Shown here one piece after another: positions 987-7,833 of a stretch of 7,889 nt of DNA. Made by a program: the position numbers and the translations under genes. How positions within the stretch are numbered: the first letter of the stretch is position 1; every line of letters begins with the position of its first letter. This DNA is from an uncultured Pyrinomonas sp. GTDB lineage: Bacteria > Acidobacteriota > Blastocatellia > Pyrinomonadales > Pyrinomonadaceae. The notes beneath the pieces were generated by a model that ran no database searches, was not told where the DNA came from, and saw only the letters and a program-made list of their open reading frames with translations. Where the stretch lies: assembly GCA_937135995.1 (NCBI GenBank), contig CAKZOF010000486.1, positions 1 through 7,889 of the forward strand, read 5' to 3'.

Positions 987-2499
987 ATGGCTGCAAACAA
1001 CCCTTCGGTGCCCATCTCTGCGGCGAGTTCCGAAGACCTAGTGCGCGAGTACAAGATCCCGCAGGTGATCGCCGCCTCGGCCGTCGGCACGGTGATCGAG
1101 TGGTACGACTTCTACATCTTCGGGAGTTTGGCGACCACCATCGCCCCCTTGTTCTATCCGCCGGGCAACGACACACTGGCGTTGATCGCCTACCTTTCCA
1201 CGTTCGCCGTCGGCTTCGTCGTGCGCCCCTTCGGCGCGCTCTTCTTTGGGCGCATCGGCGATATCATCGGGCGCAAGTATGCCTTTCTCGTCACGTTGCT
1301 GATCATGGGCGGCGCCACCGCTTTGATCGGCTTTTTGCCGACCTATGCCTCCATCGGCATCGCCGCGCCAATCATTCTGCTCACCATTCGCGTGCTGCAG
1401 GGGCTGGCGCTCGGCGGCGAATACGGCGGCGCGGTGATCTACGTGGCCGAACACGTGCCCGATGAAAAGCGCGGCTTCTACACGAGCTTCATCCAGATCA
1501 CGGCGACCTTCGGTCTCTTCGTCTCGCTGGCGGTGATCCTCGCCGTGCAGAACATGATGTCCAAAGAGGCCTTCGCCGCTTGGGGCTGGCGCTTGCCCTT
1601 CATCTTCTCGATCTTTCTGGTGCTGATCTCGCTCTACATCCGGTTGCGGATGAAAGAGTCGCCCATCTACCAGCAGATCAAGAGCGCGGGCATGACGTCG
1701 GCCAAGCCGCTGGTCGAAAGCTTCACTCGTTGGGAGAACTTGCGGCGTGTGCTTATCTCGCTCTTTGGCGCCACCGCTGGCCAGGGCGTGATCTGGTACA
1801 CGGGCCAGTTCTTCGCCCTTTACTACCTGCAGGCGATCCTCAAAATCGACAACACGTCGGCTAATTACATCGTCGCCGTCGCGCTGCTGCTGGGCGTGCC
1901 GTTCTTCATCTTCTTTGGCTGGCTCTCGGATCACGTCGGACGCAAGAAGATCATCATGCTCGGCTGCCTGCTCGCGGCGCTCAGCTACTTCCCGATCTAC
2001 CGCGCCATGCACGACGTTGCCGGGTCCAACGTCGCCACCGTCCGCTCGCAGAAGAATCCCGTTTCGGTGCGCGCAGACGCTGACGCCGCTAGCGCGCACC
2101 GAAACGGGCGAGCTTCAACCAGTCAAAACCGTGCTCCCGTACAACGGTCTCGGCAACCTGTTGCGGAATCCGGTGGCGTGGAAACTGATCTTCCTCGTCT
2201 GGATTCAAGTGATCTGGGTGACCATGGTCTACGGGCCGATCGCCGCATACTTGGTGGAGGCTTTTCCAGCCAAGATCCGTTACTCGTCGTTGTCGCTGCC
2301 GTACCACATCGGCAATGGCGTCTTCGGCGGGTTGATCCCGCTGGTGGGTGTCTCGGCCATCGCCTCGACGGGTAACATCTACGCCGGACTCTACTATCCG
2401 GTCATCGTCGCCGTGATCACGTTGATCGTCGGCATGATCTTCATGCCTGAGACGCGACACGTCAAGATATGGGAAGAGGTGCGTGCCATCGGACGGTGA
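987..2499 (+). pseudogene. MFS transporter, metabolite:H+ symporter type, broken by a frameshift
   Basis: This is an inner-membrane secondary transporter of the metabolite:H+ symporter (ProP/ShiA/MhpT-like) branch of the MFS, normally about 12 helices. Seen: EWYDFYIFG in the first helix (residues 38-46), the loop 2-3 signature GRIGDIIGRK (88-97), GGEYGGA in helix 4, and the half-way repeat GWLSDHVGRK (from residue 311). The frame starting at 987 is good to about base 2069 (residue 361), then turns into non-membrane sequence that stops at 2375. The transporter continues in the next frame from about 2074 (QTLTPLARTETGELQ...) through the last helices to the stop at 2499. Joined, the product would be about 502 residues, normal for the family. 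The shift equals one inserted or two deleted bases. As written, the protein loses roughly the last three to four helices and should not function. A sequencing or assembly error is possible. The context suggests uptake of a short carboxylate for the two synthetases downstream. Confidence 0.85.
2058..2108. repeat. Perfect 17-bp inverted repeat at the frameshift
   Basis: The left arm 2058-2074 (CCCGTTTCGGTGCGCGC) and right arm 2092-2108 (GCGCGCACCGAAACGGG) are exact reverse complements separated by a 17-base loop. It lies inside the coding region of the transporter. The right arm, read in the downstream frame, encodes a natural-looking stretch (LARTETG). The frame is lost within the left arm. 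A stem this long and GC-rich inside a gene is not expected by chance. Confidence 0.9.
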
Positions 2500-2781: not shown

Positions 2782-4467
2782 ATGGCGACTCTCGAAAAGA
2801 GCACCGGTTTGCATGATCTGCTGCGGCCCGAGGCGCACCCGCGGAGCGTGCCCGACAATCTAGCGTGGGCGGCCTTGACACGGCATGCTCACCGTCGCTG
2901 GCAACTCGCCTTGATCTGGGAGACGCGAACGGGCAGCGTGCGCACGAGCACCTTCTTCGAACTCGAGCGCGCATCGAATCGCGTCGCCAACGCGCTCGCA
3001 CAGCTCGGCGTCGGGCGCGGCGACCGTGTCTTCACGCTGCTCGGACGCACGCCCGCGCTCTACACGAGCCTGCTCGGGGCGCTGAAACTCGGGGCGGTGG
3101 TTGGCGTGCTCTTCAGCGACTTCGGTCCGACGGCGATTCAGCAGCGGCTCGCCGACGCGGGGGCCAAGGTGCTCTTTGCCGAAGCGACCAGCGCCGCGAA
3201 ACTGCTGGACGCGCGCGCCGGACTTCCCGACCTCGAACACGTCATCTTCGTCGGCAAAGAGGCGTCGCGCGCGGCGCGAGAACTGCGCGCCGCGTGCGAT
3301 CTCGGCGCGTGGGTCTTGGACGAACTGCTCGCCAAGCAACCGCCTTGTTTCTCACCGGTGCCGGTGGCCCGAAGCGAAGCCTGCTTTTTCGTCTACACGT
3401 CGGGCACCACCGGACCGCCGAAAGGCGTGGTCCACTGCCATGCCATCGCCGATCAACTGGCAGCAACGGCGCGCGAGGTGTTGGCACTCGACGAAAGCGA
3501 TCTTTATTGGTGCACTGCCGACCCAGGTTGGGTGACCGGCTTGTGCTACGGCATCTTTGCGCCTTGGTTGCTCGGCTGTCCGATCTTCGTTTACGAAGGG
3601 GAGTTCGCCGCCGAACGGTGGCTCGAACTGCTCGAACGCCACCAGATCACCTGTTGGTATACGACGCCGACGACGCTGCGGCGGCTGATGAACTGGGCCG
3701 GACGTAGGAGCTTTGCTGAACAGCGCGACTTCGCCTTGCGTCGCATCTACACGGTAGGCGAACCGCTCGGCCCGGAAGTCATCGCTTGGGCCGAAGAAGC
3801 CTTCGGCGTACCGGTCTACGACAACTACTGGCAGACCGAAACGGGCGCGCAAGTGATCGCCAATCGCCCCGGCCTGCCCGTCAAACGCGGCTCGATGGGC
3901 AAGGCCGTCGCGGGCGCGCACGTCGCGGTGATCGACGAGCAAGGCAACGAGTTGCCGCCCAACGTCGTCGGCGACATCGCCGTGCGCCCGACGCTGTCGT
4001 CGCTCTTCAAGGGCTATTGGCATCTGCCGGAGGCGACGCGCGCCTGCTTTCGCGCCGGCTGGTACGTGACGCGCGACAAAGGGCGACGCGACGAGGACGG
4101 CTACTTCTGGTTCGCCGCGCGCGCCGACGACGTCATCACCTGCGAAGCGCGGAAGATCGGGCCGTGCGAGGTGGAGAACGCACTGGCGACACATCCGGCT
4201 GTGGCCGAAGCGGCCGTGGTCGGCGTGCCCGATCCGGTGACGACTGAGCGCGTCAAAGCCTTCGTCGTGCTCCGCCCCGACCGGCAACCAACGCGTGAGC
4301 TGGCCGTCGAACTGGCTGAACACGTCGAAGCGCAGTTGTCGGCGGTGGCGCGCCCGCGTGAAGTGGAGTTCTGCGCGCATCTGCCGCGCACGAACTCGGG
4401 CAAAGTCCAACGCGCCAAGCTTCGCAGCGCGACGGAGCTGCAAGGACGCTGCTTCGTCCTCCAATGA
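2782..4467 (+). CDS. AcsA-like AMP-forming acyl-CoA synthetase with altered hinge region
   Basis: This belongs to the ANL superfamily of adenylating enzymes, which join a carboxylate to CoA via an acyl-adenylate in the cytoplasm. At 561 residues it is close to short-form Bacillus-type AcsA (about 570). Seen: ATP loop YTSGTTGPPKG (205-215), GEPLGPEV, YWQTETG (349-355), DEDGYFWF, and the A10 Lys in TNSGK (Lys541). Trp350 before QTETG matches the Trp that limits acetyl-CoA synthetases to short acids, so a small substrate is likely, though LSSLFKGYW replaces the acetate-type PSM motif. Odd: the usual TGD reads TRD (430-432); GRxDDV reads ARADDV with hinge Asp at 449 or 450; the conserved SG-x-R before the next Gly reads EARK (455-458). 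The ATG at 2782 has only a weak upstream purine stretch (GGTGAG). Gene 3' neighbour: canonical acs, 186 bp away. It could be an acetate/propionate enzyme, an adenylating enzyme with a different acceptor, or a decaying paralogue. Confidence 0.85.
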   Translation: MATLEKSTGLHDLLRPEAHPRSVPDNLAWAALTRHAHRRWQLALIWETRTGSVRTSTFFELERASNRVANALAQLGVGRGDRVFTLLGRTPALYTSLLGALKLGAVVGVLFSDFGPTAIQQRLADAGAKVLFAEATSAAKLLDARAGLPDLEHVIFVGKEASRAARELRAACDLGAWVLDELLAKQPPCFSPVPVARSEACFFVYTSGTTGPPKGVVHCHAIADQLAATAREVLALDESDLYWCTADPGWVTGLCYGIFAPWLLGCPIFVYEGEFAAERWLELLERHQITCWYTTPTTLRRLMNWAGRRSFAEQRDFALRRIYTVGEPLGPEVIAWAEEAFGVPVYDNYWQTETGAQVIANRPGLPVKRGSMGKAVAGAHVAVIDEQGNELPPNVVGDIAVRPTLSSLFKGYWHLPEATRACFRAGWYVTRDKGRRDEDGYFWFAARADDVITCEARKIGPCEVENALATHPAVAEAAVVGVPDPVTTERVKAFVVLRPDRQPTRELAVELAEHVEAQLSAVARPREVEFCAHLPRTNSGKVQRAKLRSATELQGRCFVLQ

Positions 4468-4653: not shown

Positions 4654-6630
4654 ATGTCCACTTCATATCCTGAACAACCGGTTCAAACGACGACCATCGA
4701 TTCCGTGCTGCACGAAGAGCGCGTCTTTCCGCCGCCGGCGGAGTTTGCCCAAAGCGCGCACATCCGCTCGCTGGAAGAGTACGAGCGGCTCTACGAGGAA
4801 GCGCTCCACTCACCCGAAACCTTTTGGGCCAAGCAAGCGGACCACCTTCGCTGGTTCAAGCGTTGGGACAAGGTTCTCGAGTGGGAACTGCCGCACGCTC
4901 GTTGGTTCGTCGGCGCGACGCTCAACGTCAGCGACAACTGCATCGACCGCCATCTCACTTCGTGGCGCCGTAACAAGGCAGCCATCATCTGGGAGGGCGA
5001 GCCGGGCGAACTGCGCACGCTCACTTACCAGCAGCTTCACCGCGAAGTCTGCCGCTTCGCCAACGTCTTGAAGAAAATGGGCGTGGCGCGCGGCGACCGC
5101 GTCGCCATCTACATGCCGATGGTGCCGGAGCTGCCCATCGCCATGCTCGCCTGCGCGCGCATCGGCGCGACGCATTCGGTGGTCTTCGGCGGTTTTTCAG
5201 CCGAAGCGTTGCGTGATCGCATCAACGACGCCGGTTGCAAGCTCGTCGTCACGGCTGATGGCGGCTGGCGGCGCGGCAACGAGGTGCGCTTGAAAGCGGC
5301 GGTCGATGAAGCCTTGCAACAGACGCCGAGCGTCGAACGTTGCATCGTCGTGCGGCGCACAGGTTCGCCCGTGCGCATGGAGCCGGGACGTGATTTCTGG
5401 TGGCACGAACTGGTCGAAACCGTGGACGATCACTGTCCGCCCGAAGAACTCGACAGCGAACATCCACTCTACATCCTCTACACTTCGGGAACCACGGGCA
5501 AACCCAAAGGCATCCTCCACACCACGGGGGGCTACCTGCTGCAGACGGCGCTGACGGCCAAATGGGTCTTCGATCTCAAGGACGAAGACATCTACTGGTG
5601 CACGGCCGACATCGGCTGGGTGACGGGCCACTCCTACGTGGTCTATGGCCCACTGGCCAACGGCGCGACCGTGTTGATGTACGAAGGCGCGCCCAACCAT
5701 CCGGAGCCGGACCGCTTCTGGGAGATCATCGAACGCCACCGCGTGACGATCTTCTACACGGCGCCGACCGCGATCCGTTCCTTCATTAGGTGGGGCGAAC
5801 AGTGGCCGCTCAAGCACGATCTATCGAGCTTACGCCTGCTGGGGTCGGTCGGCGAACCGATCAATCCGGAAGCCTGGATGTGGTACCGCGAAGTGATCGG
5901 CAAAGGGCGCTGCCCGATCGTCGACACGTGGTGGCAGACCGAAACGGGCGCGATCATGATCAGTCCGCTGCCCGGCGCGACGCCGACCAAACCGGGTTCG
6001 GCGACGCGCCCGCTGCCCGGCATCGTCGCTGACATCCGGACCAAAGATGGACGCAGCGTCGGTCCGAACGAAGGCGGGTATCTGGTGATCACGCGACCGT
6101 GGCCGTCGATGATGCGCACGATCTGGGGCGATGATGAACGCTATCGCCGCCAGTACTGGTCCGAAATCGAGGGCGTTTACTTCACGGGCGACGGCGCGCG
6201 GCGCGACAACGACGGATACTTCTGGATCATGGGACGCGTCGACGACGTGATCAACGTAAGCGGCCATCGATTGGGAACGGCAGAAGTGGAAAGCGCGCTC
6301 GTTTCGCACGAAGCGGTGGCCGAAGCGGCCGTGGTCGGGCGACCCGATGAGATCAAGGGATCGGCAATCGTCGCCTTCGTCACGCTGGAAGCCGGGCGCA
6401 CGCCGAGCGAGGAATTGCGCGAAGAGTTGAAGCGCCACGTGGTCAAAGAGATCGGCGCGCTCGCGCGCCCTGACGAGATCCGCTTCACCGACGCGCTGCC
6501 CAAGACGCGCTCCGGCAAGATCATGCGCCGATTGCTGCGCGAGCTTGCCGCAAGCGGTGTGGTGCGCGGTGACACGACCACGCTCGAAGACTTCTCCGTG
6601 CTGGAAAGACTCCGCATGGAAGAAGAGTGA
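4654..6630 (+). CDS. acs: Acetyl-CoA synthetase (acetate--CoA ligase, AMP-forming)
   Basis: The enzyme makes acetyl-CoA from acetate, ATP and CoA through acetyl-AMP, feeding the TCA/glyoxylate pathways. From ATG 4654 it is 658 residues, matching the usual 650-660. Domains: N-terminal ACAS_N region ([17 protein letters not shown], about 26-42), large AMP-binding domain, then the mobile C-terminal domain. Seen: ATP loop [11 protein letters not shown] (276-286), [18 protein letters not shown] with the two Trp at 426-427 that favour acetate, TGD (511-513), [16 protein letters not shown] with Asp530/531 at the hinge and Gly537/Arg539 in the thioester loop, and the A10 catalytic Lys622 in RSGKIMRR. 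This Lys is normally controlled by acetylation (Pat/sirtuin); no acetyltransferase gene is in the window. All key residues are intact, in contrast to the upstream paralogue, so this copy is likely the working acetate activator. Confidence 0.95.
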
Positions 6631-6664: not shown

Positions 6665-7033
6665 ATCCTTCGCGATGAGCCAAGTCATCGGCTCGCGCCC
6701 TTCATCATCGAGGCTTTCGCCGGACTCTCGATCTTTCGGGTCCGGCGAAAGCTCTTCGCCGGGCCCGAAACGAAAGCGAGCCACTTCGAGACGCGATCTG
6801 CGCTGGCCCGACAACCGACTGTCGACGCAATCGGCTCATCATCGTTGAGCGAAGCATGGTCGTGATGCACAGCGGTTCGACGCGGGCGAAGGCGCGCCTG
6901 CGGCCCACCATCGTTGTGCCGCAGATCGGCTCCAGATCCGCGAACGACTTGCAACATCCCTTCTTTTCTGCTGAAAATCAGTCGAGTAGAGATCGGCGTC
7001 GGACGCGCGAGCCCCCTTCGGCGCGCTCGCCTG
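6665..7033. other. Non-coding stretch between acs and the DUF7009-like gene
   Basis: I see no convincing gene here. Open frames on both strands are short, low-complexity in Arg/Ser/Ala and match no family I know. Besides the overlapping hairpins it holds a 7-bp dyad CTGCGGC/GCCGCAG (6898-6904 and 6918-6924). A weak promoter-like pair, TTGCAA (6949-6954) and GAAAAT (6973-6978) with 18 bases between, is near the only AT-rich patch and could serve the DUF7009-like gene. Confidence 0.4.
6713..6770 (+). terminator. Three-segment overlapping inverted repeats after acs
   Basis: Segment 1 (6713-6725, GCTTTCGCCGGAC) is the exact reverse complement of 6740-6752, a 13-bp stem with a 14-base loop. The overlapping segment 6734-6749 (TTTCGGGTCCGGCGAA) pairs over 16 positions with 6755-6770 (one G-T wobble), with a 5-base loop. 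The middle segment can pair with either side, so the two hairpins exclude each other. Without a T run or reading frame nearby, I cannot tell a terminator/attenuator from a dispersed palindromic repeat. Confidence 0.45.
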
Positions 7034-7127
7034 AGAGCGTCGCTCCGAATGAGCAGAGCTTCGACCGAATGGGGAGAACGAGGGCGTCGATTCAAATGAG
7101 CAGAGCTTCGACCGAATGGAGAGAAAG
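7034..7127 (+). repeat. 47-bp tandem duplication ending at the start codon
   Basis: Unit 1 is 7034-7080 and unit 2 is 7081-7127, directly abutting. By eye 41 of 47 positions are identical, including an unbroken 25-base core (7048-7072 and 7095-7119). Unit 2 ends at the base before ATG 7128 and carries the GGAG (7118-7121) used as ribosome-binding site. Unit 1 carries the matching GGGGAG (7071-7076) with no start behind it. No further copy is visible upstream. Confidence 0.9.
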
Positions 7128-7442
7128 ATGAAGCTTCGCCTCCAGCAAAACTCCCTGCGGCTCCGGTTATCGGATGAAGAGGTCGCGCAGTTGGCCGAGC
7201 GCGGACGGCTCGAGGAGAGCATCGAGTTCGACGCTGACCGCCGCTTGACCTATGCGCTGGAGATCGGCGGCGAAGGCGCGCCGATGAGCGCACGCTACGA
7301 ACGCGACACGATCACGGTGACGCTGCCGCCCGCCGCGCGCACATGGCACGAGACCGATCGGCTGGGCTTCGAGTCCGAACAAGTGAGCGCTCAGACGGGC
7401 ACCCGCCTGCGCCTGGTCGTGGAGAAAGACTTGGGGCATTGA
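7128..7442 (+). CDS. DUF7009-like small protein
   Basis: A 104-residue soluble protein without signal peptide or membrane segment. The N-terminus MKLRLQQNSLRLRLSDEEV, followed by a predicted run of short beta strands (SIEFD, LTYALEI, DTITVTLP, RLRLVVEKD), matches my memory of the DUF7009 family of Bacteroidetes and Acidobacteria, whose function is unknown. ATG 7128 is preferred over the in-frame ATG 7116 because family members begin at MK(L/I)R and GGAG (7118-7121) then sits 6 bases upstream. As I recall, family members continue beyond the EKD motif with a Cys-containing acidic tail; here the protein stops four residues after EKD, so the C-terminus may be short. It stands alone, far from acs, so its job cannot be inferred from neighbours. 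Confidence 0.7.
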   Translation: MKLRLQQNSLRLRLSDEEVAQLAERGRLEESIEFDADRRLTYALEIGGEGAPMSARYERDTITVTLPPAARTWHETDRLGFESEQVSAQTGTRLRLVVEKDLGH

Positions 7443-7681
7443 CGAGAAGAGTGCACCAAACACAGTCAGGCGGACGTGCGCGAGTTCGATCACCGATGGA
7501 GCGGAGATGCGGCCCGCGTCCGCTCATCGGGCAAGCAATCGGGTAAGCGTCGGTTCTGAAACCCATCGGCTTCGCTCTGAAGTAACTGGTGGGCGGCGCC
7601 GAACCGAATACTTGCCGCGCCGTCTGGGAAACGAAGTTTCCGAAGATTGCCAATCCGCCATCCTTGCCTCATGAATTAACC
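7443..7681. other. Non-coding stretch after the DUF7009-like gene
   Basis: I see no convincing gene on either strand. It contains a small imperfect tandem repeat (ATCGGGCAAGCA at 7526-7537, ATCGGGTAAGCG at 7538-7549) and a 6-bp stem with a 3-base loop (GGAAAC at 7627-7632, GTTTCC at 7636-7641). The composition drifts to lower GC toward the 3' side. Confidence 0.4.
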
Positions 7682-7794
7682 CACGCAATACGCAACTCAT
7701 CATCAGATTCCGATCAGAGAGCATTTTGAGTTTACAGGTGAGATGTCGGGGTGCACGCAATACGAGCCTTATCATCAGATTCCCGATCAGAGCA
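7682..7794. repeat. Pair of diverged direct repeats of about 42 bp
   Basis: Copy 1 (7682-7723) and copy 2 (7754-7794) share CACGCAATACG at the start and ATCATCAGATTC-CGATCAGAG in the middle, 72 bases apart. Within each copy ATCAG occurs twice (7702 and 7713; 7774 and 7786), about one helical turn apart. A looser echo follows each copy: GCATTTTGAGT at 7721 and GCTTTTTGAGT at 7810. They could be operator sites for the next gene or remnants of a duplicated dispersed repeat. Confidence 0.6.
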
Positions 7795-7833
7795 CCTCAG
7801 GGGTTCAATGCTTTTTGAGTCAAACCGACGCAT

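What the first reader, a model, noticed from the sequence alone, without database searches (positions are those of the whole stretch)
2058..2108. Perfect 17-bp inverted repeat exactly at the frameshift: possible quasi-palindrome templated mutation
The arms 2058-2074 and 2092-2108 are perfect reverse complements and the frame is lost in the left arm. The right arm reads as ordinary protein in its frame. One explanation is that the left arm was rewritten by intrastrand template switching from the right arm, turning an imperfect palindrome into a perfect one and adding or losing bases. Alternatives are a polymerase stall giving a sequencing artefact, or a hairpin that influences translation frame.
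Basis: partly seen in the sequence, partly recalled or inferred. Interest (0 to 1): 0.72.

Follow-up and report, generated by a model that had tools for sequence, protein, structure and literature searches.

The report
Hairpin-templated mutation broke transporter gene
A perfect 17-base inverted repeat sits exactly where a bacterial transporter gene loses its reading frame, while a near-identical database version of the protein is intact; most likely a DNA polymerase briefly copied the opposite arm, a known kind of mutation of which this would be a new natural case.

Summary
The inverted repeat is real: 2058-2074 and 2092-2108, 17 of 17 complementary, 17-nt spacer. No perfect repeat of 16 nt or more arose in 1,000 resampled windows or occurs in 95 sampled contigs of the same genome. 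It lies in an MFS transporter gene (987-2499) whose frame changes inside the left arm.

P0002, a 503-aa database protein, matches the gene at 357 of 358 residues before the site and 142 of 142 after it, in one frame. Where P0002 has Thr-Gly (6 nt) the window has 7 nt (2064-2070), so at least one base was gained and one substituted. The whole arm equals the complement of the right arm, whose protein reading is unchanged. The 17-mer has no other exact copy in the genome. Random changes of similar size gave no repeat of 16 nt or more in 96,000 trials on 24 relatives.

Best reading: a recent quasipalindrome template-switch mutation that truncates the transporter. The class is known from E. coli; this is a new instance. 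A library foldback artefact is not excluded, because no reads or sister DNA were available.

The parts
987..2375 (+). Frame 0 of the transporter gene as it now reads: 462-aa product, native through V359, then an out-of-frame tail
   Evidence: Database protein P0001 is this product; upstream 357 of 358 residues equal P0002
2058..2074 (+). Left arm (inferred recipient) of the perfect inverted repeat
   Evidence: 17 of 17 complementary to 2092-2108
2064..2070 (+). Seven bases standing where P0002 has two codons (Thr360-Gly361); the frame is lost here
2075..2091 (+). 17-nt spacer; reads as P0002 in the downstream frame
2092..2108 (+). Right arm (inferred donor/template); encodes the same residues as P0002
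   Evidence: the 17-mer has exactly two copies in the genome, these arms
2071..2499 (+). Remainder of the transporter gene in the shifted frame, undecayed: 142 residues, all equal to P0002, then stop

Best explanation
The left arm is an exact complement of the right arm and lies where the transporter gene changes frame, most likely because a DNA polymerase paused at an imperfect inverted repeat, switched to the right arm as template for about a dozen bases, and switched back. Before the event, as inferred from the intact protein P0002, the arms could probably already pair at their outer end (CCCGT/ACGGG) and inner end (GCGC/GCGC), with at least one mismatch and a one-base length difference between. 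Copying from the right arm would fix both in one event, make the repeat perfect and add one base. The frame change replaces the last 142 native residues (three of ten hydropathy-predicted membrane segments), so the protein is probably non-functional. Shown: the perfect repeat, the frame change, an intact near-identical protein, the unchanged protein reading of the right arm. Inferred: that it was a single event, that it happened in the cell, which nascent strand folded back, and loss of function.
For: P0002 is identical at 357 of 358 residues before and 142 of 142 after the site and intact; P0003-P0007 (98-99% upstream identity) also read through. At least two separate differences are needed for any codon choice; weighted by codon use in the window's genes the number is 2 (1.8%), 3 (38%), 4 (46%) or 5 (14%), and the resulting arm matches the right arm 17 of 17. 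Thr-Gly is kept by 115 of 120 listed homologues, so the left arm is the derived side. The 17-mer has no other exact copy in the genome. 0 of 24 intact relatives has a perfect repeat of 10 nt or more at the site, and 0 of 96,000 random one-insertion-two-substitution changes there gave 16 nt or more (best 15, once). The published mechanism makes a quasipalindrome perfect or more perfect (PMC7202029, abstract and start of introduction).
Against: Sister DNA and reads were not available, so the ancestral bases and the reality of the allele are inferred. The palindrome allele (P0001) is listed on two contigs, the longest being this one, and whether the second is independent is unknown; the neighbouring acetyl-CoA synthetase protein is listed on four contigs, the longest 36,207 nt, so the allele may be a minority. 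Relatives also carry long perfect repeats: 30 of 15 nt or more in 138 loci (723 kb, some overlapping), 11 of them with an open frame of 300 nt or more across. Frameshifted versions of this gene are not unique to the window.
Confidence: 0.8

Rival explanations
1. The palindrome is a library or assembly artefact: a single strand folded back and was extended in the tube, and the chimeric read entered a low-coverage consensus.
For: Artefact reads made at inverted repeats and palindromes are documented for sonication and enzymatic fragmentation (PMC10908179, abstract) and would leave the same signature. The assembly is fragmented (821 contigs). The rest of the gene shows no decay.
Against: No other perfect repeat of 16 nt or more in 95 sampled contigs. 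The artefacts in that paper were low-frequency calls, whereas this sequence is the assembled consensus. P0001 is listed on two contigs, though these may be one assembly deposited twice.
Confidence: 0.13
2. Two or more ordinary, independent mutations (an insertion and one or more substitutions) happened to make the arms complementary.
For: Each change is of an ordinary kind, and frameshifts occur elsewhere in this gene in other database proteins (P0008, P0013, P0063, P0082).
Confidence: 0.04
3. The hairpin is a functional element that makes ribosomes shift frame and so yields the full protein.
For: A strong predicted hairpin and an undecayed second frame.
Against: 24 of 24 relatives that reach past the site read it in one frame (a 25th, L029, ends before it), as do P0002-P0007. 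The pairing starts at the frame-loss site itself instead of a few bases downstream of a shift site, and no Rfam family matches anywhere in the window. No slippery site was recognised by eye.
Confidence: 0.02
4. The left arm is a piece of a dispersed repeat or mobile element that inserted.
For: Short dispersed repeats often carry inverted repeats (general knowledge).
Against: Only the two arms match the 17-mer exactly in the genome; one other site has one mismatch and thirteen have two. The net length change against P0002 is one base.
Confidence: 0.01

Closest known systems
Quasipalindrome-associated template-switch mutations of E. coli (thyA, rpsL, lacZ QP reporters)
   Same: An imperfect short inverted repeat becomes perfect; one arm is rewritten from the other; indels and substitutions arise together; loss of gene function (PMC7202029 abstract and start of introduction; PMC6357072 passages; thyA and rpsL as cited in PMC8604942).
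   Different: Here a single presumed natural event in an uncharacterised bacterium, read by comparing database proteins; no rate, strand or genetic dependence is known.
Template-switch multinucleotide mutations in yeast genes
   Same: Arm homogenisation inside coding DNA; 39 genes reported in S. cerevisiae strains (PMC8604942, abstract).
   Different: That survey left out indels (passages); the present case is frame-breaking.
Foldback and palindrome artefacts of sequencing libraries
   Same: Would give the same sequence signature in a read (PMC10908179, abstract).
   Different: Reported there as low-frequency variants in human tumour libraries, not as an assembled consensus.

Membership tests
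Quasipalindrome-associated template-switch mutation | Two inverted arms close enough to fold, perfect or more perfect in the derived state | tested here: met
   17 of 17, spacer 17 nt; predicted fold z -6.35
Quasipalindrome-associated template-switch mutation | Ancestral arms imperfectly complementary | tested here: met
   At protein level: no codon choice for P0002's residues gives the perfect arm; smallest distance 2
Quasipalindrome-associated template-switch mutation | Changed bases match the complement of the other arm | tested here: met
   Arms identical as reverse complements
Quasipalindrome-associated template-switch mutation | Donor arm unchanged | tested here: inconclusive
   Same residues as P0002; silent differences cannot be seen without its DNA
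Quasipalindrome-associated template-switch mutation | Changes arose in one replication event in the cell | not testable with these tools
   No reads, no population DNA, no reporter assay
Programmed ribosomal frameshift site | Frame change conserved among orthologues | tested here: not met
   24 of 24 relatives that reach past the site read it in one frame; P0002-P0007 likewise
Library foldback artefact | Other palindromes of this size in the same assembly | tested here: not met
   0 of 95 sampled contigs (of 821) have a perfect repeat of 16 nt or more with spacer up to 60; one isolated artefact stays possible
Library foldback artefact | Absent from most reads | not testable with these tools
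   No reads held

The most novel reading that the evidence does not exclude
The site is a built-in mutational hotspot: its imperfect hairpin repeatedly switches this metabolite transporter off by templated frameshift in part of the wild population, so that intact and palindromic alleles coexist as a one-way genetic switch.
Probability: 0.07. Interest if true: 0.55.

Novelty: new member of a known kind. Interest (0 to 1): 0.3.

Why it matters
If real, it is a cleanly readable case of a template-switch mutation that includes an indel, in a bacterium outside the laboratory models. It also suggests a simple search rule: a perfect inverted repeat sitting exactly on a frame loss, with a near-identical intact version elsewhere. 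Applied to many genomes, that rule could measure how often genes are lost in this way. By itself it changes no mechanism.

Tried and rejected
Recoding hairpin: rejected, since relatives read through in one frame. Repeat or mobile element: rejected, since the 17-mer is exact only in the two arms. Structured RNA: no Rfam match at gathering threshold. A general palindrome problem of the assembly: not seen in 95 of 821 contigs. The same-genus genome G001 has no match to the transporter at E <= 0.001, so no DNA-level sister comparison there. No solved structure matched P0002 at E <= 1e-10. A second place in the genome found by DNA (C345, 44 nt, 82%) looks by eye like an MFS motif in another gene. 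Near-equal lengths of neighbouring contigs suggested duplicate haplotypes; blastn among the 95 found none. P0063 also loses its frame at this very spot, with a different tail, so it is not the same event; only its protein was seen. Results against: the wider relatives do carry long perfect repeats, 26 of 17 nt or more in 138 partly overlapping loci, 8 of these with an open frame across, so length alone proves nothing; the argument rests on the coincidence with the frame loss and on P0002.

Full report
What the window is. It is one whole contig (C486, 7,889 nt) of an unnamed draft genome of 3.45 Mb in 821 contigs, 96.8% complete and 3.4% contaminated, probably a metagenome-assembled genome (inferred). 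The acetyl-CoA synthetase encoded at 4654-6630 is 92% identical to that of Pyrinomonas methylaliphatogenes, of the family Pyrinomonadaceae, phylum Acidobacteriota, so the organism is probably close to Pyrinomonas (inferred).

The repeat. Arms 2058-2074 and 2092-2108 are perfect reverse complements with a 17-nt spacer. In 1,000 first-order Markov resamplings of the window no perfect repeat of 16 nt or more with a spacer up to 60 arose, and none exists in 95 other contigs, 400,350 nt, of the same genome. That sample does hold 13 repeats of 13-15 nt where resampling gives about 1.3, so this null is lenient. The strand folds at -27.7 kcal/mol, z -6.35. In 138 loci of relatives, many from other phyla and some overlapping (723 kb), there are 30 perfect repeats of 15 nt or more; 19 have no open frame of 300 nt or more across them and 11 have. 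Repeats of this length are thus not extraordinary in bacteria at large; what is unusual is the place.

The gene. Frame 0 from 987 encodes a transporter whose best NCBIfam hit is the metabolite/H+ symporter subfamily TIGR00883, below its curated cut-off, with Pfam PF00083 and PF07690. Of 25 family- and class-level loci above the cut-off (69-81% upstream identity) reach past the site and read it in one frame, often as NPVTGAI-LTPQT; the 25th (L029) ends before it. In the window the frame moves by one base inside the left arm.

The decisive comparison. The protein search (8,000 candidates scored, 120 listed) returned P0001, the window's own frameshifted product (462 aa, two contigs, longest 7,889), and P0002 (503 aa, 4 member sequences, contig 9,205). 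P0002 equals the window gene at 357 of 358 residues before the site (residue 18 differs) and at 142 of 142 after it, and reads SQKNPVTGAQTLTPLARTETGELQP there. P0003-P0007, 98-99% identical upstream, read through in the same way. So the left arm is the derived side: where P0002 has Thr-Gly the window has seven bases, 2064-2070. At least two differences are needed for any codon choice; weighted by codon use in the window's genes the number is 2 (1.8%), 3 (38%), 4 (46%) or 5 (14%). The resulting arm matches the right arm 17 of 17. The right arm and the spacer still encode the residues of P0002; silent differences cannot be seen, because only the protein of P0002 is held.

Direction and donor. 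Thr-Gly is present in 115 of the 120 listed homologues; the exceptions are P0001, P0025, P0037, P0063 and P0076. The 17-mer has exactly two copies in the genome, the two arms; one other site has one mismatch and thirteen have two. The donor is therefore most simply the right arm.

Chance. None of 24 intact relatives has a perfect repeat of 10 nt or more at the site. Random changes of one insertion and two substitutions there (4,000 each, 96,000 in all) gave at best 15 nt, once. This null used relatives of 69-81% identity and not the unknown sister DNA, so it does not measure the chance given an existing quasipalindrome; speaks to that (1 of 724 products for the most favourable ancestor tried, 1 of about 7,600 for two others, out of reach for a fourth).

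Mechanism (inferred). The outer and inner ends of the arms could already pair before the event. A nascent strand that had copied the right arm and spacer could fold back after the first inner bases of the left arm, extend on its own right arm and realign at the outer end; or a strand coming from the other side could use a sister or parental strand. The product is the same, so the two routes cannot be told apart here. This is the published quasipalindrome mechanism (PMC7202029, abstract and start of introduction). E. coli lacZ reporters with an 18-bp quasipalindrome register such events on either strand (PMC6357072, passages); thyA, rpsL and T4 rII cases are cited in PMC8604942 (passages); a review on bacterial mutation bias lists such sites among local causes (PMC10710837, passages). 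The titles listed by four searches (11 of 11, 20 of 36, 15 of 2,420, 3 of 3) included no survey of natural template-switch frameshifts in bacteria. That says little about print at large: the lists were capped, and the library is open-access only.

Consequence. The 462-aa product keeps seven of the ten hydropathy-predicted membrane segments of P0002 (a crude method) and ends in an out-of-frame tail, so the transporter is probably dead. The downstream part has not decayed, so the event is recent, or the sequence is an artefact. A search with the out-of-frame tail (795 candidates) found only P0001 and P0008, and P0008 loses its frame further down.

Against. No reads and no sister DNA could be examined. 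Foldback artefacts can imitate this signature (PMC10908179, abstract). Seven of the 120 listed homologues lack the C-terminal signature (P0001, P0008, P0013, P0024, P0063, P0082, P0088); P0024 and P0088 simply end early, and some of the others may be assembly errors. A frameshift by itself is therefore not remarkable here. The argument rests on the changed bases being those dictated by the other arm.

Verdict. My estimate is about 0.93 that the right arm templated the left arm by some polymerase, and 0.8 that this happened in the cell.

Noticed in passing
window 2782-4467: An acyl/acetyl-CoA synthetase-like gene (best NCBIfam NF003313, below cut-off) lies next to the broken transporter. The same-genus genome G001 has no match to the transporter and its best match to this protein is only 39% identical, so the pair may be an accessory acid-uptake module.
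   Followed up: partly
window 7048-7072 and 7095-7119: A 25-nt direct repeat (aatgagcagagcttcgaccgaatgg) stands twice just upstream of a DUF7009 gene (7131-7442); seen by eye.
   Followed up: no
window 6713-6752: A 13-nt perfect inverted repeat with a 14-nt spacer downstream of the acetyl-CoA synthetase gene; possibly a terminator, not tested.
   Followed up: no
window 7681-7795: A second imperfect direct repeat (around 'cacgcaatacg...catcagattc...gatcagag') near the contig end; seen by eye.
   Followed up: no
proteins P0008, P0013, P0063, P0082: Four other listed homologues of this transporter also lose their frame in the C-terminal third, P0063 at the same spot as the window; real losses or assembly errors.
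   Followed up: partly
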